In this document: positions 12,109-24,262 of the stretch, piece after piece
How positions within the stretch are numbered: the first letter of the stretch is position 1
How the letters are laid out: the number at the start of each line of letters is the position of its first letter
NCBI RefSeq assembly: GCF_900215155.1
Contig: NZ_LT907980.1
Span: 992,001 to 1,056,000, forward strand
Reading direction: 5' to 3'
DNA: 64,000 nt
Origin: Marinobacter sp. LV10R510-11A
Lineage (GTDB): Bacteria; Pseudomonadota; Gammaproteobacteria; Pseudomonadales; Oleiphilaceae
Made by a program: the position numbers and the translations under genes
The notes under the pieces: generated by a model
What the model was told of the DNA's origin: nothing
Databases searched by the model: none
Seen by the model: the letters and a program-made list of their open reading frames with translations, nothing else

Positions 12109-12684
12109 TTGAACCACCTCGCCCATCTTTTTCTTGCCCCAGACTCGCCAGAGGCGCGGGTGGGCAGCGTTCTTGGGGATTTCACCCGGGGCGTGGACGT
12201 AGCGGCACTCCCATATGCTGTAAGGCTGGGCGTTCGCCATCACCTCGCCGTGGACAGCTTTACCGATAAACACCCCGATGTGCTGGCCAGTAAGCGGCTT
12301 TTTTCCACACAGCGACGCAGGTTTGCAGGAGTAGCTCTGGATGTTCTTTACGACTACTTTCTCTTACGCCATTGGGCCAAATTTACCGATGCCGACCAAA
12401 ACACCTTTATACGCACCGTGTATGCACAGCTTCAGGATAACGAAAACCTGATGTCGCCCGGCATGAGCAGGACCACCCGCCATATGGTGTCCCACGACTG
12501 GTTTGGATCCTATCGCGATCTCGACAACATAGGTTATGCCCTGGACAGGGTGACAGAGCGCATCCGCTTCCAAAATGCGTTTGCCGGAATCATTCACGAG
12601 ATCCGGCCGCTGCATTCAGAGCTTGAAGAACGATTTTTATCATTTTTCCCAGATTTACAGTCATTTGCAGGAGGAATTGAATGA
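12109..12684 (+). CDS. acpH: Acyl-carrier-protein phosphodiesterase
   Basis: This 191-residue HD-like hydrolase begins with the family hallmark MNHLAHLFLA. It removes the 4'-phosphopantetheine arm from holo-ACP in the cytoplasm. The start codon is TTG: no ATG or GTG exists in the conserved N-terminus. The stop overlaps the start of the next gene in an ATGA arrangement, so the two are probably translationally coupled. Confidence 0.88.
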   Translation: MNHLAHLFLAPDSPEARVGSVLGDFTRGVDVAALPYAVRLGVRHHLAVDSFTDKHPDVLASKRLFSTQRRRFAGVALDVLYDYFLLRHWAKFTDADQNTFIRTVYAQLQDNENLMSPGMSRTTRHMVSHDWFGSYRDLDNIGYALDRVTERIRFQNAFAGIIHEIRPLHSELEERFLSFFPDLQSFAGGIE

Positions 12685-13298
12685 GATTTCTGATCCCCTT
12701 TTCACTCGCTACGGCGCTTATTATCCCGACCGCAGCCTTGGCAGACACAACGTCAAAAAGCGAAGCGACGGTTCCCGAGACTCTCGGGTTTGTAGAGTGG
12801 GTGGTAATGCACGACACCGGTCTTAGGCTTAAAGCTCGGCTGGATACCGGTGCAAAAACCTCATCGCTACACGCAGTGAATGTGGAAGAGTTCAAGCAAG
12901 ACGATCAGAAATGGGTGAAATTCCAGATTCCATTAGCAGATCACAAGGATCACCCTGCCGAAGGTGATATTAACCATGAAGAGATCATTCTAGAACTGGA
13001 GCTGCCAGTTGAGCGCACCGTACTTATAAAACGCAAAGGCGCGCCATCCCAAAGACGCTACGTTGTGATGATGGATTTTTGTATTTCTGGCATTCGCCAT
13101 GAAACCCAGTTTTCACTGACGGATCGCGGCAATTTCTCATACCCAGTTCTACTCGGGCGTCGGTTTATGAGGGACGACAACATATTGATCGACTCTGCCG
13201 ACAGCTTTATTGCCAGCAAAGAGTGTGAGTACATGAGCTTGGAAGAGCTTGTAGACAAGCAGCAGGCAAAAATTGTTACGGGCGATGAAACAACCTGA
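12681..13298 (+). CDS. Retropepsin-like protease of the RimB / ATP-dependent zinc protease family
   Basis: This 205-residue protein has a signal-like N-terminus (MRFLIPFSLATALIIPTAA, cleavage near ALA) and then a single retropepsin-like domain with the catalytic-type motif RLDTGAKTSSLHA. The family was annotated as ATP-dependent zinc protease, but the D-T-G motif points to an aspartic protease fold. Because of its leader this member probably acts in the periplasm, unlike cytoplasmic RimB. It overlaps acpH by 4 bp. Confidence 0.8.
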   Translation: MRFLIPFSLATALIIPTAALADTTSKSEATVPETLGFVEWVVMHDTGLRLKARLDTGAKTSSLHAVNVEEFKQDDQKWVKFQIPLADHKDHPAEGDINHEEIILELELPVERTVLIKRKGAPSQRRYVVMMDFCISGIRHETQFSLTDRGNFSYPVLLGRRFMRDDNILIDSADSFIASKECEYMSLEELVDKQQAKIVTGDETT

Positions 13299-13387
13299 AA
13301 ACGTTATCGAGACTAAAGCTTTAATATTCCTGAAATAATAAAAACTTAGACTCTTTTCCACGATCACACTCAATGGGAAAGGTTTAT

Positions 13388-15024
13388 ATGAAGCGCTTGT
13401 TTTTTGTGTCCATGGTTGCTGCCAGCGTTTTGCCGCTGGCAGCATGCTTTAATGACTCCGGCTCGTCAGGCAATGGCACGACGGCGGGTAACCCGGAAGT
13501 AGTCCCACCACTGGTTGAAGCGCAAGCCACCCGTTTTCGGGTTTTGCCTTATCTGCAAAACCCATCCGCAACCGGCACAACCGTTGTTTGGTTTACTGAC
13601 ACCGATGTGTCTGGCAGCATCGAGGTAGAGGGGATTGGCTCATTCGATTCTCGCCCGGTACTGGCTGAGCACCTGAGTTATGGTGCCTCTGAAGTAGACT
13701 ACATCCACGGCGATAAAAACTACGGTAACACCCTACCCATACACGGTCATTCAGCCTGGGGCTGACGCCGACTTCACCTCAGAATTTAAAACGGCCGCAG
13801 TAACGGGCAGCCGCACACCGGTTCGCTTCATCACTATGTCTGATATGGAAACAGAACCCGAGTCCACCCAAAAAACGGTTCGCTGGACGGCTAATGGGCT
13901 TACGGCTGATGGCTGATGGCGGCAAGCTGGGCACAGATCCTTCAACTTACACCCGGCAGTATCCGGTCGACCAGACCACAGGCTTTAAAGCCAATATTCA
14001 ATACGCAACGGAACGTAACCCTGACTTTTTGGTAATCGCGGGCGATCTGGTTGAAAAGGGCGGGCGCCAGCTCGACTGGGACGAATTCTGGCGCCATACC
14101 GCAGGTGAGTGGAGCACCTTAGCCTCCACAACGCCTATCTTCCCGGCGCTGGGCAACCATGAGAACTATTGGCACCCGGAAAGCCCCGGCTACAACGCCG
14201 CCGCATCCATGCTTTCCTATGACAAATGGAATACCTATTGGGAGCTGCCCCGAAATTTTGGAACCGATGAGCGCTATGAAAAGCGTTATTACCGTGCTGA
14301 TTACGGCCCGGTGACCCTGATTATACTGGACTCATCAAACGGTGATGACAGCGATCCGTCAAAAGACACCAATCTGATGATTAACGGGACAGAATCCAGA
14401 ATTCCGGATTTTAACAAAGGTAGTGAACAGTGGAATTGGGCAGTGCGGGAACTGGCCAACGCTCAGGCCACGGGACAAATCATCTTTGTGCAATTTCACC
14501 ATACTGCCTTTGGCACCGGTGTTCACAGCATGACCCCAGGCTCTGCTGGCATTGCCAATGGCGAAGACAATCAGTCTGGCATGCCCATGCGAATCTATCG
14601 AGACCTGTTCGAACGGTATGCCGTAACGGCGGTACTTTCAGGGCATGATGAACTGCTCGAATACGTAGAAATGAATGGCGTGCACTACTGGGATGTTGGA
14701 TTTTCCGGCGACGGCCTGCGTGGCTCGGGCTACCCGCCAACGACAACCTACGTTCCCTTTGACCTGCTGCCAGCCGAGGCCCAGGCAACACACTGGAGTG
14801 CTCACAGTGATGCACCTGAAATATGGAGTGGGAACCAGCTTATCGACGGTGGCAAGCACTACGGTTTTGTTGAGGTGGACGTGCGCCCCATGGGTGATTA
14901 CGACTACGAGGTAGTGATGACCCCGCGCTATGTCTTTCCGCTGATGAACGAAGCAGGGGACGTTACCGGCGAATTCGATTATCGGCAGTACAGCAAGGTG
15001 GTGAGTGTGACGGTTAAGCGCTGA
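13388..15024 (+). pseudogene. Exported lipoprotein metallophosphoesterase, broken by two frame disruptions
   Basis: The start gives a lipoprotein leader (MKRLFFVSMVAAS, lipobox LAAC), then an Fn3/purple-acid-phosphatase-like N-domain. The metallophosphoesterase core follows, with GDLVEKGG, GNHE, QFHHTAFG and SGHDE as metal-ligand motifs. The frame is broken twice. Near 13735-13765 the first frame hits TGA and homology continues one frame over, apparently with some residues missing. At 13905-13918 the heptamer GCTGATG is present twice in tandem; removing one copy restores the frame exactly (TADGGKLGTD). About 1.1 kb of intact core lies downstream. The product would have been an envelope phosphatase or phosphodiesterase. 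A sequencing error cannot be excluded. Confidence 0.85.
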
Positions 15025-15967: not shown

Positions 15968-17275
15968 TTAAACATAGAAATCCAGCTCTTCCTGGGCTTT
16001 CAACAGATCCCGCATCTTGATGGGGTCGTCACCAAAGAAGAAGATCAGGCCCCAATGAGTGCCGAAAGCTGCCCGGTCAGGAACCGTCTCTTCTGTCGGC
16101 GCGACCAATTCGTGAGACTCAAAGTAAGGGTGATCAACGGTTTCACTGGGCATTTCCAGCTTGCTGACCACACGACGTCTTGGGTACACGCCAAAGCAAC
16201 CTGCGTAGCATTTCGCATCAACCACTTCCCGTGGGAAGAAGGCAGCCACTTCCTCTTTCGTGCTCTTCGGATCAAACACCAACATTGAGGCCTGGTATGC
16301 GCTGAACCCGTAAGCTCTCTCTATAAGCTCGAACGCTTTGAATCCGGGCGGGCGATACGCAACCTCGCCAAAGTACATCTCACCATCTGCAGTGACGAAG
16401 TACTCGGGATGAATCAAACCGAATTTTATCTCGAACGTTTTGATCAACAACTCGATCTGCTTGGTGATCGCGTTGCGCCAGCTCTCGAGTTGCGCGGTAG
16501 CGGGTACAAATACCGAATAGCCCAAGGTTACATATTCGGAAATATTGAGAAACTGGATTTTACCATCGTGGATCCACGCCTCAACGGCAAACTCCCAGCC
16601 ATCTAGGTGACTTTCCATCAGTAGCGGATATTCTTCCGCCGGAATGTTGTCGATTTCTTCTACTTTTCGGATCATTCGGTGGCCAAGGCAACCGGCCTTG
16701 TCGAATGCTTTAACGTGTATCGGGTCGTCCGGGTCACCATCCAGCTTGAGCAGCGTCTGGTTGACTCGCTTCATAAAGCGCACGATGTCTTCTTTCTCGT
16801 GCGCTTCCTCGAAGATACCCACACGAATTCCGCCAAGCTGTGCACGGCGCTTCATCAGAGCCTTGTCGCGGAACAGAATAGACTGCCCGAACATACGAGG
16901 GCTATCGAGGAGGACAGAGTTGATCGCCCCCGACCACTCGACGGTTTCCTCGAACAGCGGTATCGCCACATCAACACCTTCCGCCTTAAGCCTTTTTGCA
17001 ATCTCCAGGGACCGATCGTTCAGACGGAGAAAATCCCATGGGATGAAAGGTATCTTGTTTGCAGTACAGAAATCAGCAGCCCACTCGGGGGCAACCACTA
17101 TATAGCGGCGGTCAAACTTTTGTGCCGCCTTGATCGCATTGACGCTCCAGCCAAGCAGGGCGATGTAGCCTTTGTTCGGATCCTTGGGAGTCTCGGTTCC
17201 TTTGACTGAGTCCATGTTGGGATCGAGCCAAGCTGCTACTTCTTTGCGTAATTGAGTTTCTGGTGTTATCGACAT
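15968..17275 (-). CDS. ATP-grasp carboxylate-amine ligase-like protein
   Basis: This 435-residue protein has the three-part ATP-grasp layout. The N-terminal pre-ATP domain starts GYIALLGWSVNAIKAAQKF. The central lid follows, with VKAFDKAGCLGHRMIRK. The metal/ATP-binding C-lobe contains GLIHPEYFVTADGEMYFGEV, where the Glu pair would bind Mg-ATP. It should join a carboxylate to an amine or thiol, but the substrates are unknown. It lies divergent from the 667-residue unknown gene and selO, with about 210 bp of shared upstream sequence, which suggests co-regulation. Confidence 0.8.
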   Translation of the reverse strand: MSITPETQLRKEVAAWLDPNMDSVKGTETPKDPNKGYIALLGWSVNAIKAAQKFDRRYIVVAPEWAADFCTANKIPFIPWDFLRLNDRSLEIAKRLKAEGVDVAIPLFEETVEWSGAINSVLLDSPRMFGQSILFRDKALMKRRAQLGGIRVGIFEEAHEKEDIVRFMKRVNQTLLKLDGDPDDPIHVKAFDKAGCLGHRMIRKVEEIDNIPAEEYPLLMESHLDGWEFAVEAWIHDGKIQFLNISEYVTLGYSVFVPATAQLESWRNAITKQIELLIKTFEIKFGLIHPEYFVTADGEMYFGEVAYRPPGFKAFELIERAYGFSAYQASMLVFDPKSTKEEVAAFFPREVVDAKCYAGCFGVYPRRRVVSKLEMPSETVDHPYFESHELVAPTEETVPDRAAFGTHWGLIFFFGDDPIKMRDLLKAQEELDFYV

Positions 17276-17486
17276 TCGTGGTTCTCCTTACTGATTAGCA
17301 CAGACAAACGGCGTGGATATTTAAACACACCCGATAAATTGGGTGATTTGGCTCCGACGTTTACCTCAATATAGTCGTCGTGGTTACAATTGGAAACAAA
17401 AGTCTCAGAATAGTTTGCTTCCGAAACGCCTTAAGAGCATCTTTGGGCGATTCGAAGCAGCCAATTGCTTAGGCAAGGACATTATT

Positions 17487-19490
17487 GTGACTATTTCCAG
17501 TTCTGAATCAGATACTAATGTTTTGCTTGCAACCTTTGACGGGGCGCTGGAACAGCTTGCGCTTGCCCGAAAGACCGCTCCCATGGCGTCTAACAGGGAA
17601 GTACTGGACGCAGCACTCCTCGTTATGGAAGCTCCGGGCGGGCTGGACGCGCTGTACGCCCGAGTACCGGCAATGGAGGCCAAGGGCATATTTACCAACG
17701 GTGATTGGGGCCAACCCGCTATCCTGAGGCCCGCGCTCGCCGTGCGCACGTTACGCCAGGGTGCGCCAGACTTCACGGCCATCGAAGCCCTGAGTGAGCT
17801 TAGGCTGCTTGCTGTAGCTATGGGTGATTTTCGCCATCCCGGAATTTCAGCAGAGCAGGCCAAGCGGTTTTTGACTCAGGTGACGGCATTGAATCTGGAT
17901 CTGCTGTCAGGCCAGATGAGCGAAGCGGATCGGGAGCGGCCACAGGGGCTAGGACAAATCGTCAACTCGCTCTATCAGTATCTGCTCAGCAGGCTGGGCT
18001 ACGAGAGTATTCTCGACAGCTTGGTGGATGAAGTGCGCCGTTTGCTGGCCCAGCGACCAATACAAACAGACAGCATTAAGCAGATGGTCAGCCAAATTGC
18101 CAAATGTCTGTTTGATCCGGCAATAGAGACGTCGGGTATGGATAAAGCAGCGCGCCTTGTGAGCGCTTTATTCGGCCCAGCTGCAGGCTGCCGCGATGAC
18201 CCGGGCTTTGCAGTCTATAGCGAGCGCCTGGCGGCCATGGACGAACTCGCGCTATCTAAAGAGGCCCAGGGCTTTGCCAGTGCAATGCACGAAACGGGCA
18301 TGGTTTCTCCCTACCATCCCATGTTGTTACGACACCTGCTCGCTCACTGGGATCATCTGATACCTTTGGCACTGGGCCTGAGCATCACCGGCAACGACGC
18401 CCTTCAATGCTACCGCCAGATTGTCCTCAAACTGATAGACGAAGTTGTACACCCGGAAACCAGTCAGGCTGTATACGGGCTGGCCATGCTTCTTGAACGC
18501 GGCTCTCTATTCACCCCACCAGTGGCTTCGGGCTTATGGCGGCACGTCGAAATGAAGCTGTGCTCGGCGGCATCTGAACAACTGAGCGAAGTTTTCGGCA
18601 ATGCACACCCTCCGCGGGTGTATTTACTCGCCGGTGTATTGAGCCTGCTAGGGCAACCTTTGGGTGTTGGCCAGGGTAACAACCCGACGTGTCAGTCGGT
18701 TATCGGCCTTTCAATGTGGGCCTTCAACAACGCTGATTATCTGTTGCAGTTGGTGGCCTGGGCCGCCCGTGATGATGATGTCGTTATGCGTTTCGAGGGT
18801 CACCAAATAACCTCTCAACACCTGGAAGCCGGCCTTGCGAAAGAACCTCCAACAGATGTGGACCCGGTTTCACTGGTTCTGGTGCCCCACCTTGATCGGA
18901 TTTATGGCGAGATGGGGCGCTTGTGCGGCGTGCGGGACGACGACCTGCACCGCTGGATAAACCCTGAAATGTATGGCTGGTGGGTAGGGCATGGGTTTCT
19001 TAGTGTCATAAGCCGGGAGACAGGGAAAATCCACGACTATCAGTACTTTATACGCCACTTTTATGCCTGCTATCACCCATATTACAATGGCAACATACCG
19101 GTTATCCATCCACAACCAGCCGGCATCGCAGTTACCGACAGTGGAGGGCGCCTAGTTGGACGCCATGCCATAACCATCATCCGGGTGAACCTTGATCGAC
19201 ATGGCGAAATACGCATCTATTTTTTCAATCCCAACAACGACAGCGGCCAGGATTGGGGCCAGGGTATTAATTGCTCGACCCAGAGTAATGGAGAACGCTA
19301 CGGCGAAGCGTCGCTACCGTTCGCTGAATTTGCTTCACGCTTGTGCGTATTTCATTACGACGCGAGAGAACTGGGAGACATGTCGATGGTTCCCGAAGCA
19401 GACGTTGCATGCGCCACAGAACTCGGCCGCGACAGTTGGGCCGCGAGCTATGAGAAAGGCGCAGAAAACATAATCAAACCCACGCATTAG
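17487..19490 (+). CDS. Uncharacterised 667-residue protein with a putative papain-fold C-terminus
   Basis: I do not recognise the family. The GTG start at 17487 is preceded by AAGGA at good spacing; an upstream extension reads as non-coding. Residues 1-380 look all-helical and repeat-like. The C-terminal third has three patches that resemble a Cys-peptidase or transglutaminase site: C402 in [10 protein letters not shown] followed by a helix, H560 in [10 protein letters not shown], and N581/N583 in [10 protein letters not shown]. Conserved aromatic sequence ([17 protein letters not shown]) lies between them. There is no signal peptide or membrane segment. selO follows 14 bp downstream and an ATP-grasp ligase is divergent upstream. 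Catalysis is inferred from the pattern only. Confidence 0.75.
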
Positions 19491-19504
19491 GAGTCCCACC
19501 CGCT

Positions 19505-21187
19505 ATGGTCGCGACCCTCGATGATCTCGCAAAGTTGGCAAACTATTCGCTCATGGATTCTCTCAACTGCGACCCTGACGCGAAAGCAAACGGGCGCGAC
19601 CATGAACCGCGACAAGTGTTCACGGGTCACTATGTTCCCGTTAATCCCACGCCAATCGAAAACCCGGAGTACGTCGCCCATAGCAAAGACTTATTTCGCG
19701 AACTGGGCTTTGCCGACAGCATGGCGCAGTCGGCTGACTTCGTACGTGTGTTCTCCGGCGACCTTACGGGCGTTCCAGAGCCGATGCGTAAGGTCGGTTG
19801 GGCGTGTGGCTACGCACTGTCTATCTACGGAACCGAATACAACCAGCAATGTCCGTTCCAAACCGGCAACGGATACGGCGACGGGCGCGCAATTTCAGTG
19901 CTAGAGGCCGTCATCAGTGGTCGACGCTGGGAAATGCAATTAAAAGGCGGTGGCCGGACGCCATACTGCCGTGGGGCCGACGGTCGGGCCGTTCTACGCT
20001 CGAGTGTCCGGGAGTTTCTGGCACAGGAGCACATGCACGCACTCGGGGTGCCAACGTCACGTTCCCTAAGCTTGTACGTCTCGAAAACGGAGAAGGTCAG
20101 GCGGCCGTGGTACTCACAGGGCTCACATTCGAAGGATCCAGACATACTTATATCTGAGCCAGTCGCCATCTCAACGCGCGTCGCACCGTCGTTCCTTCGG
20201 GTTGGCCAACTTGAGCTCTTCAGTCGTCGCGCCCGCAAGAAGGAACACCCGCACGCGATGGAGGAGCTCGAGAAGATTGTGTTACACTTGATCGATCGTG
20301 AGTACGCAGACGCAATCGACCAGACACTAGCCACCGCCGAAAAAGTGGTGTTGCTTGCCCGCGAGTTCCTCGGCCGACTCACGTCGCTTGTGGCGAACTG
20401 GATCCGCGTTGGCTACTGCCAAGGCAACTTCAACAGCGACAACTGTGCCGCCGGCGGCTTCACACTCGACTACGGGCCATTCGGATTTTGCGATGTGTTT
20501 GATCCGCATTACCAGCCATGGACCGGTGGCGGACATCATTTCGCGTTCCTGAATCAACCAGAGGCAGCAAAGCGCAACTTCCACATGTTTTGTTCAGCGC
20601 TGCGGCCGTTGCTGACGTCGCATCAGGATTGCTTGCAACAGCTCGACGAGATTCAAAGTGATTTTCCAAAGGTGATGCAAACGCAAATGGAGAAGATGTG
20701 GGCTGCCAAACTTGGGCTTGATGCTTTTCACCCGGCGCTGTTCAGCGAGCTCGCAACGCTGATGGAGCAAACGTCTGTTGATTACACCATTTTCTTCCGC
20801 GAGCTCTCGAGGGTGCCTGACGATATTGGCTTACTCAAAACGAGCTTCTACGAGGGCTCGACGTACGATACAGACCCAGAAGGCATGGACAAGCGCTGGT
20901 CTGAGTGGCTCACAAAATGGAAATCGCTCACTCGACCGCGCTCTCGTGAGGAGCTTTCTCGACAGATGAAGCTCGTCAATCCAAAATACAGTTTGCGGGA
21001 GTGGTTTGTTGTGCCTGCGTATCAACAGGCGGCTGGGGGGAACTATTCTTTAATTCGAGAGCTGCAGGAAGTCATGACGCAGCCATACGCCGAGCAATCG
21101 AAGACCGTGGAGGAGCAGTACTATAGGCTGAAGCCGTCGGAGTTCTTTGAGGTCGGTGGATCGTCGCATTATAGCTGCTCGTCGTGA
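19505..21187 (+). CDS. selO: SelO/YdiU-type protein adenylyltransferase, divergent
   Basis: This 560-residue pseudokinase transfers AMP from ATP to Ser, Thr or Tyr of target proteins in redox stress. The core is recognisable: the Gly-rich [19 protein letters not shown], then [20 protein letters not shown], and the DFG-like [10 protein letters not shown] (Asp322). The catalytic loop reads [11 protein letters not shown] (D312, N313), where most SelO proteins have HGVxNTDN, so this is an unusual branch. It ends CSS, with Cys in the position of the selenocysteine of animal SelO; the terminal TGA is a normal stop. GGAG precedes the ATG, 14 bp after the upstream gene, so they form one operon. Confidence 0.93.
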
Positions 21188-22798: not shown

Positions 22799-24262
22799 AT
22801 GAACGTAGTCATTATAGGCGCGGGGATTATGGGAACCACTTTTGCCACCTTGGCAAAAGAGATAGCACCGGATCTGGATATCACCATTTTAGAGAGACTG
22901 GACAGTGCCGGCGGAGGAAACTCCTCTCCATTCTGGAACGCCGGTACGGGACATGAAGCTAACTGTGAGCTTAATTATACTCCAGTGGATGGAGAGGCCA
23001 TTTCGATTGAAAAAGCTTATAAGATTCATGCCCAGTTCAATGTTGCCAAGCAGTTTTGGGCATATTTGATCGAAAAAGGGGCCATCAAAGACCCTAAAAC
23101 GTTTATTAATCAAACCAAGCATTGCACCATTGTTTCCGAATCCGCTATTGAAGAACTGCGATTACGGTTCAAGGAAATGTCGGCTCATCATTTTTTTGAG
23201 CACATGCGGTACTCCGAAGACTTTGATGAAATCAAGAGCTGGATTCCTTACACCATGGACGAGCGCCCACGCCATGAAAAAATGGCGGCTACCGTCATTG
23301 AGACAGGTACGGATGTTAATTTTGGTGCGTTAACGGAGCAAATGGCGGCCCACGCAATGCAGGACTTGGGTGTAAAGTTTGAGTATGGCACCCACGTTAA
23401 GCGCGTGCACAGGAGCCCGACCGAGCGGTGGGTTATCGAGGCTGAATGCAAAGGGAAACCGGTTCAGTACAAAGCGGATGTGCTTTTTGTCGGTGCCGGT
23501 GGGGGCGCATTTCCCCTTCTGAAAAAAAGCCACTTGCCGTTTCGAAACCGCTTCACCGGCTTTCCTGTGGGTGGGCGCTTTCTTCGGGCGCCGATCAGTG
23601 AAGAGCAGGCCGGGTATTACCAGGCTAAAACCTATGGCAAAGCGAAAGTGGGCGCGCCTCCCATGTCCGTGCCGCATCTGGATTTGCGGGTGGTTGACGG
23701 TAAGCATTACTTATTGTTTGGTCCTTTCGCCTCATTCAAACCTCTGCTTGAGAGAGGCCGTGGGTTTTTTGATTACCTCAGATCCATTCGGCCGCACGAC
23801 ATCCCGGGTTTGCTGAATGTAGCCTTAGAGAATTTCCCCTTGGTTAAATATCTGGTTTCAGAGACGTTCAAAGGCGAAAAGAGCATGTTCGAGGAGCTTG
23901 ATAGCTTTGCTCCGGGCTTGAGTAAACGATTTGACTGGAAACCGATTCAAGCCGGCCAGCGAGTGCAAATCATCAAAGACCGTGGTTTGCAGATGGGCAC
24001 AGAAATCATTGTGTCCAAGGACAAAACTTACGGGACCTTACTGGGGGCATCGCCCGGGGCGTCGGTTTCGCCTGAGGTTATGTTGCGCTGTCTGGAACAA
24101 TTGATACCGTCTATCTTTTATAAAGAGGAAGCTAAGAAAAAGAAGAATGAGATTTTTCCTGAGGATGATCTGGATACATTGATCAGTAATCCTGATCGTT
24201 ACCGGGAGATTCGCGATGCAGCTAACAAGCAGTTGGGGATAACTCAGACCAAGGCGCAATGA
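22799..24262 (+). CDS. mqo: Malate:quinone oxidoreductase
   Basis: This 487-residue FAD-dependent peripheral membrane enzyme oxidises malate to oxaloacetate and passes electrons to quinone. The N-terminal dinucleotide-binding motif is VVIIGAGIMGTTFA. The Mqo hallmark appears as NAGTGHEANCELNYTP, and the C-terminal substrate/FAD region as GTLLGASPGASVSPEVMLRC. The length matches the family. It appears monocistronic and stands at the left edge of the copper cluster. Confidence 0.95.
   Translation: MNVVIIGAGIMGTTFATLAKEIAPDLDITILERLDSAGGGNSSPFWNAGTGHEANCELNYTPVDGEAISIEKAYKIHAQFNVAKQFWAYLIEKGAIKDPKTFINQTKHCTIVSESAIEELRLRFKEMSAHHFFEHMRYSEDFDEIKSWIPYTMDERPRHEKMAATVIETGTDVNFGALTEQMAAHAMQDLGVKFEYGTHVKRVHRSPTERWVIEAECKGKPVQYKADVLFVGAGGGAFPLLKKSHLPFRNRFTGFPVGGRFLRAPISEEQAGYYQAKTYGKAKVGAPPMSVPHLDLRVVDGKHYLLFGPFASFKPLLERGRGFFDYLRSIRPHDIPGLLNVALENFPLVKYLVSETFKGEKSMFEELDSFAPGLSKRFDWKPIQAGQRVQIIKDRGLQMGTEIIVSKDKTYGTLLGASPGASVSPEVMLRCLEQLIPSIFYKEEAKKKKNEIFPEDDLDTLISNPDRYREIRDAANKQLGITQTKAQ

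What the first reader, a model, noticed from the sequence alone, without database searches (positions are those of the whole stretch)
15968..21187. Candidate undescribed system: SelO AMPylase, putative Cys-enzyme and ATP-grasp ligase
Seen: a 667-residue protein of no recognised family, 14 bp ahead of selO, with an ATP-grasp ligase divergent 210 bp upstream. Its C-terminal third has C402 (NNPTCQS), H560 (GRHAI) and N581/N583 (FFNPNN), in the order of papain-fold proteases and transglutaminases. Known: SelO adenylylates proteins; ATP-grasp enzymes form amide or thioester bonds. Inference: the three may attach and remove a modification, for example ligation of a peptide or amino acid, cleavage, and AMPylation as control.
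Basis: partly seen in the sequence, partly recalled or inferred. Interest (0 to 1): 0.72.

Follow-up and report, generated by a model that had tools for sequence, protein, structure and literature searches.

The report
ATP-grasp ligase paired with papain-like enzyme
Two neighbouring genes of a salt-water bacterium, one for an enzyme that should join molecules and one for an enzyme that looks able to cut or transfer such joints, form a previously unnamed pair that the genomes examined keep or lack together, while the third gene in the original guess looks like a chance neighbour.

Summary
In detail: an ATP-grasp protein (ATPG), a 667-aa protein without a Pfam family (CYS) and a SelO-type protein lie as stated. 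CYS is a predicted papain-fold enzyme: Q396, C402, H560 and N583 are invariant in 102 aligned sequences, and its last 291 residues match calpains and other papain-like proteases, with modest scores. The three-gene system is not supported: SelO lies within the fetched flank in 3 of 105 loci, directly behind CYS only here. The ATPG-CYS pair is strongly supported. Each gene is found in 55 of 97 relatives, 11 of 398 phylum genomes and 147 of 201 genomes of a family I take to be Halomonadaceae, the same genomes each time (22, 31; 66, 67). In some genomes the ligase beside CYS is gone or a remnant, while an intact second ligase stands elsewhere, so one ligase apparently serves a distant CYS in trans. 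Best reading: ATPG makes an amide-linked product, and CYS, through a thioester, transfers or cleaves that bond. Substrate unknown; no activity shown. New variant of the ATP-grasp plus cysteine-amidase theme.

The parts
15968..17275 (-). ATPG: ATP-grasp ligase resembling L-amino acid ligases
   Evidence: PF13535 E 6e-6; the only solved chains matched are L-amino acid ligases 4wd3 (E 3.2e-4) and 3vot/BL00235 (E 6.1e-3); the region of the ATP-grasp core residues is conserved in 52 aligned sequences
17276..17486 (.). Divergent intergenic region between ATPG and CYS
   Evidence: sequence; the divergent arrangement recurs in many close relatives, such as L016-L020, L022-L025, L156-L159
17487..19490 (+). 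CYS: 667-aa protein, helical N-terminal part plus papain-like C-terminal part
   Evidence: open frame; AlphaFold model, mean pLDDT 80.2, pTM 0.76
17487..18581 (+). N-terminal all-helical part of CYS (residues 1-365), no known family
   Evidence: secondary structure of the model; only weak matches to helical-repeat proteins, mostly over residues 72-176
18582..19454 (+). Papain-like catalytic part of CYS (residues 366-656)
18672..18692 (+). Q396-GNNPT-C402: predicted oxyanion-hole Gln and nucleophile Cys, six residues apart as in papain Q19/C25 (papain numbering recalled)
   Evidence: both in 102 of 102 sequences; C402 is the first residue of a helix in the model
19164..19166 (+). H560: predicted catalytic His, in a beta strand
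   Evidence: 102 of 102; strand 556-569
19227..19238 (+). N581-P-N-N584: predicted third residue of the triad
   Evidence: N583 102 of 102, N581 and N584 101 of 102; follows strand 575-580
19505..21187 (+). SelO-type protein: a neighbour, judged NOT part of the system
   Evidence: PF02696; no matching distribution and no conserved adjacency

Best explanation
ATPG and CYS are a two-enzyme system for one kind of amide (or peptide) bond. Step 1 (inferred): ATPG, an ATP-grasp ligase of the L-amino acid ligase type, activates a carboxylate as an acyl phosphate and joins it to an amine, giving a soluble product or a tagged protein. Step 2 (inferred): CYS, a papain-fold enzyme with the catalytic set Q396-C402-H560-N583, attacks that bond to form a thioester on C402 and then hands the acyl group to a new acceptor or to water. 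I slightly favour transfer, the logic of glutathione synthesis followed by phytochelatin synthase (recalled), because the two genes depend on each other and because a number of genomes hold more CYS copies than ligases. Shown by computation: the invariant residues, a probable papain-like fold, the joint presence and absence, and the replacement of a lost neighbouring ligase by a distant one. Not shown: any catalytic activity, the substrate, or that the two enzymes act on the same bond. SelO is not part of it.
For: Joint presence: 55 of 97 relatives for CYS and for ATPG, 11 of 398 in the phylum sample and 147 of 201 in G143's family, taken as Halomonadaceae; the positive handles are the same in each pair, 204 distinct positive genomes with no discordant one seen. 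Operon: ATPG just before CYS on the same strand in 15 of 20 core loci that I chose and in 7 of 8 loci from other families (L145-L149, L151, L152; L150 is divergent). In trans: in G022, G040 and G060 (L197-L199) the core locus has Mqo and CYS without ATPG, while their only ligase stands elsewhere beside just a short CYS remnant. In 6 genomes of G143's family, chosen because the tables suggested it (L203-L208), CYS is there, the ligase in front is gone (2 of 6) or a 40- to 105-residue remnant (4 of 6), and an intact second ligase lies on another contig or 125 kb to 2.3 Mb away. Fold and residues. Ligase.
Confidence: 0.55

Rival explanations
1. Protein-modification cycle: ATPG adds an amino acid to a protein and CYS removes it, like tubulin tyrosine ligase and vasohibin (recalled). 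The large helical N-terminal part of CYS would bind the target protein.
Against: No target protein gene recurs beside the pair. The only solved ligases matched are L-amino acid ligases, which make dipeptides rather than protein tags (recalled). Helical matches at this Z may mean only a common arrangement, as the tool's note says.
Confidence: 0.25
2. CYS is the substrate or activated partner of ATPG: the ligase modifies CYS itself, for example an acidic or C-terminal residue, to mature it, and CYS acts on something unrelated.
For: Would also explain strict dependence in both directions and one ligase serving a CYS in trans.
Against: The last residues of CYS are poorly conserved; no particular acceptor site is suggested.
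Confidence: 0.1
3. The first reader's three-part system with SelO AMPylation as control.
For: SelO is 14 bp behind CYS here, with a Shine-Dalgarno-like AGGAG at the junction, and keeps the NSDN and DYGPFG motifs of the typical copy (the motifs' role in SelO is recalled). It lies 1.3 and 3.3 kb from CYS in two further loci, L018 and L036.
Against: Presence of this SelO does not follow the pair in 97 relatives. It lies within the flank in 3 of 105 loci and directly behind CYS in one. The genome has a second copy, 88% identical, beside an Nfu-type and an Mrp/NUBPL-type gene.
Confidence: 0.03
4. The pair is a selfish or defence cassette that travels as a unit, and joint presence reflects linkage only.
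For: Patchy copies, signs of transfer (Halomonas and Vreelandella copies inside the Marinobacter window-type clade), remnants of lost copies.
Against: Genomes keep both genes even when they are far apart or on different contigs; no PADLOC match; no relative confirmed in viral contigs or phage records; one plasmid record in 72,556, a 1.8-Mb replicon.
Confidence: 0.07

Closest known systems
L-amino acid ligases RizA (4WD3; gene name recalled) and BL00235 (3VOT)
   Same: Only solved relatives of ATPG found by sequence; the region with the metal-binding Glu residues and Arg aligns.
   Different: E-values only 3e-4 and 6e-3; those enzymes are not known to need a papain-like partner (recalled); substrate of ATPG unknown.
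Papain-like cysteine peptidases (calpain, staphopain, C39, bleomycin hydrolase)
   Same: Predicted fold, order Q-C-H-N, Gln-Cys spacing of six.
   Different: No sequence match to a Pfam family or a solved chain; carries a 365-residue helical part; kept together with an ATP-grasp ligase.
Glutathionylspermidine synthetase/amidase (recalled)
   Same: ATP-grasp-type ligase joined with a papain-like cysteine amidase acting on the same bond.
   Different: There both are one polypeptide; here two genes, sometimes far apart, in unequal copy number.
Glutathione synthetase plus phytochelatin synthase (recalled)
   Same: ATP-grasp enzyme makes a peptide that a papain-like transpeptidase then uses.
   Different: No Pfam match of CYS to phytochelatin synthase.
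Rim and Rlo systems of Pseudomonas (PMC12239564, passages seen)
   Same: ATP-grasp protein encoded with a protease and, in Rlo, an inactive transglutaminase; RimK adds glutamates to a ribosomal protein.
   Different: Their proteases are retropepsin-like; CYS is predicted papain-like and keeps its catalytic residues. ATPG was not compared directly with RimK or RloC.

Membership tests
Papain-like cysteine peptidase superfamily | Catalytic Cys, His, Asn/Asp in this order with an oxyanion-hole Gln ahead of Cys | tested here: met
   Q396, C402, H560, N583 each in 102 of 102 sequences
Papain-like cysteine peptidase superfamily | Papain-like fold | tested here: met
Papain-like cysteine peptidase superfamily | Cysteine-dependent cleavage or acyl transfer | not testable with these tools
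   needs protein assay
Transglutaminase family | Cys-His-Asp triad and family profile | tested here: inconclusive
   No Pfam match; the expected third position is Asn, though Asp585 close by is also conserved (101 of 102)
L-amino acid ligase / ATP-grasp_4 (PF13535) | Score above Pfam's cut-off | tested here: not met
   26.4 bits against 27
L-amino acid ligase / ATP-grasp_4 (PF13535) | Metal-binding Glu pair and following Arg of the ATP-grasp core | tested here: met
   HPEYF...YFGEVAYRPPG aligned with 3VOT and 4WD3 and conserved in 52 aligned sequences; roles of residues recalled
L-amino acid ligase | ATP-dependent dipeptide formation | not testable with these tools
   needs enzyme assay
SelO protein adenylyltransferase | PF02696 above cut-off | tested here: met
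   228.8 bits against 22.8; NCBIfam cut-offs not reached: 304 of 431, 233 of 850 and 198 of 900 bits
Three-gene SelO/CYS/ATPG system | Conserved co-occurrence or adjacency of SelO with the pair | tested here: not met
Rlo/Rim systems | Retropepsin-like protease plus RimK-like ATP-grasp in one operon | tested here: not met
   CYS is papain-like; the retropepsin-like gene at 12681-13298 is 2.7 kb from ATPG on the other strand, and recurs in 4 of 30 ligase loci
Known anti-phage defence proteins | Match in PADLOC-DB | tested here: not met
   no match at E 0.01 for the three proteins

The most novel reading that the evidence does not exclude
A new kind of modular amide-bond metabolism: one shared ATP-grasp ligase makes a diffusible peptide-like donor, and a set of exchangeable papain-like transferases (three intact copies in this genome), each with its own helical recognition part, moves the acyl group to different acceptors, perhaps proteins, as a cytosolic tagging system of salt-loving Gammaproteobacteria.
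Probability: 0.25. Interest if true: 0.82.

Novelty: new variant of a known kind. Interest (0 to 1): 0.6.

Why it matters
A pair of enzymes, one of them without a Pfam or NCBIfam family, is present in 147 of 201 sampled genomes of one family and in 53 of 61 genomes of the window's genus. The natural replacement of a lost ligase by a distant one predicts a testable dependence: CYS without any ATPG should be useless or harmful. It would add a product or a protein modification not yet known in salt-loving bacteria, and give a cysteine enzyme family with an unusual helical partner domain.

Tried and rejected
SelO as third member: rejected. Defence or phage origin: no PADLOC match, no relative in viral contigs (39 pattern matches, none confirmed) or phage records. 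A recurring third partner: neighbours of CYS loci include transporters, acyl-CoA ligases, a polyamine-type binding protein and acetylpolyamine-amidohydrolase-like genes (my reading of the sequences, not profile-tested), but each only in subsets of loci that look like local synteny. Behind CYS in three core loci of G143's family lies a TlyA-like methyltransferase and beyond it a mechanosensitive-channel-like gene (names from my reading); both recur in the six core loci; judged synteny. Malate:quinone oxidoreductase lies upstream on the same strand (about 0.1-0.6 kb from ATPG or CYS) in 15 of 20 core loci that I chose, stays beside CYS in L197-L199 where ATPG is missing, but is absent in L188, L194-L196 and L200 and from the core loci of G143's family, so I do not take it as a partner.

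My first ORF caller let antisense ORFs hide ATPG in some loci; I recounted by tblastn, and the earlier counts are not used. The 39 of 105 loci with ATPG include one cut by the contig end (L021) and one fragment (L036).

Papers: searches listed none that, by title and start of abstract, describes an ATP-grasp plus papain-like pair in these bacteria; the library lacks most subscription papers, and Iyer et al. 2009 (PMC3268129), the review I recall as most relevant, was not held. PMC10318531 (classification of papain-like enzymes): two passages seen. PMC12239564: passages. PMC10364804 (SelO neighbourhoods): passages; the term ATP-grasp has no occurrence in its main text.

Fold search of the whole CYS model gave no significant Foldseek match (best E 0.19); the catalytic part was therefore modelled alone. 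ATPG was not modelled, because the two structure jobs went to CYS.

Full report
What is there. The window is part of a 4.44-Mb genome, contig 1, 992001-1056000. In the same way I take G143's family (f36) as Halomonadaceae, because its CYS groups with one from a Halomonas plasmid. CYS has no Pfam or NCBIfam family, SelO does, and ATPG is a weak ATP-grasp_4 match. The genome has three intact CYS genes and one broken one, two ATPG genes and three SelO-like genes.

ATPG is a probable amide-forming ligase. The only solved sequences matched are two L-amino acid ligases, and the aligned metal-binding region is conserved in 52 aligned sequences. ATPG is more conserved than CYS: between this window and the core loci L145-L149 and L125, ATPG shares 76-79% and CYS 53-55%.

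The two genes go together. In 97 relatives, 55 have CYS and 55 have ATPG, the same handles; within the window's genus 53 of 61 have both and 8 neither. In 398 genomes drawn from the phylum, 11 and 11, the same handles. In 201 genomes of G143's family, 147 and 147, the same handles (34 negatives are not listed by name in either). Removing overlaps this is 204 distinct positive genomes, and I saw none with only one of the two. Thresholds were E 1e-3 (CYS), 1e-60 (ATPG; both) and 1e-30 (ATPG). One genome (G055) has its only CYS in two overlapping pieces, which may be an assembly error. Relatedness makes the genomes dependent, so I give no p-value.

The link does not rest on neighbourhood. The core arrangement is ATPG followed by CYS on one strand. 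In G022, G040 and G060 (one clade in the CYS tree) the ligase is missing from that locus (L197-L199), and their single ligase is of the window type at another locus, next to which only short CYS remnants remain. G004 and G026, another clade, also lack the core ligase (L196, L200) and have the window-type ligase. In G143's family, nine genomes in the tables have exactly one ligase match, of the window type, and one CYS match of core-type score (G524, G546, G565, G602, G609, G641, G663, G669, G671; for G602, G663 and G669 the place of CYS was not listed). I checked six in DNA, chosen because the tables suggested this: in four the core locus keeps a piece of 40 to 105 residues of the old ligase directly before CYS, in two nothing is left, and the intact ligase elsewhere has no CYS within the 12-13 kb fetched. 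So the resident ligase was lost where a second one was available. This supports action in trans and a need for at least one ligase.

SelO is not part of the system. This SelO matches in 48 of 97 relatives at E 1e-60 and does not follow the pair (against 11 and 29). It lies within the flank in 3 of 105 loci (WIN, L018, L036) and in the operon-like position only here. In several relatives it lies about 5-39 kb from CYS or ATPG on the same contig (G034, G026, G010, G057, G040, G049), which suggests shared regional synteny. The second copy in this genome sits beside Nfu-type and Mrp/NUBPL-type genes. The passages I saw of a SelO neighbourhood study do not mention ATP-grasp (PMC10364804).

How it may work. 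ATPG should make an amide or peptide bond from a carboxylate and an amine with ATP. CYS should form a thioester from an amide and pass it on or hydrolyse it. That both act on one bond is inferred from their strict joint retention. Transfer fits genomes with more CYS copies than ligases better than pure breakdown does, but a modification-removal cycle on proteins is a serious rival because of the large helical part of CYS. Neither has been shown.

Novelty. The theme, an ATP-grasp ligase with a cysteine amidase or protease, is known (recalled). No description of this pair appeared in the listings of the searches I made, with the limit that the review I recall as most relevant was not held. I rate it a new variant of a known kind.

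Noticed in passing
L013 (own genome C1:1895170-1896589): A fourth, broken CYS copy: pieces in the same order with a stop and missing parts.
   Followed up: partly
window 22799-24262 and L012:4113-5594: A malate:quinone oxidoreductase gene lies near both ATPG-CYS loci of this genome (38% alike); in 15 of 20 chosen core loci one lies just upstream.
   Followed up: partly
L014:6674-10405: Second long SelO copy (88% identical to the window's) abutting an Nfu-type gene and an Mrp/NUBPL-type gene fused to a GBBH-like domain.
   Followed up: partly
window 12681-13298: Retropepsin-like protein (PF05618, 117 bits), the kind found in Rim/Rlo systems, 2.7 kb from ATPG; no RimK-like gene was sought.
   Followed up: no
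window 13373-15024: A lipoprotein-like ORF and a metallophosphoesterase ORF (PF00149) in a row look like two parts of one phosphatase gene, possibly interrupted.
   Followed up: no
L209-L217: In G143's family the window-type ATPG stands without CYS in the 12-13 kb fetched, in 9 of 9 loci looked at, as if transferred singly.
   Followed up: partly
L031, L033: Copies of the window-type CYS in Vreelandella rituensis and Halomonas salinarum fall inside the Marinobacter clade of the tree, suggesting transfer.
   Followed up: no
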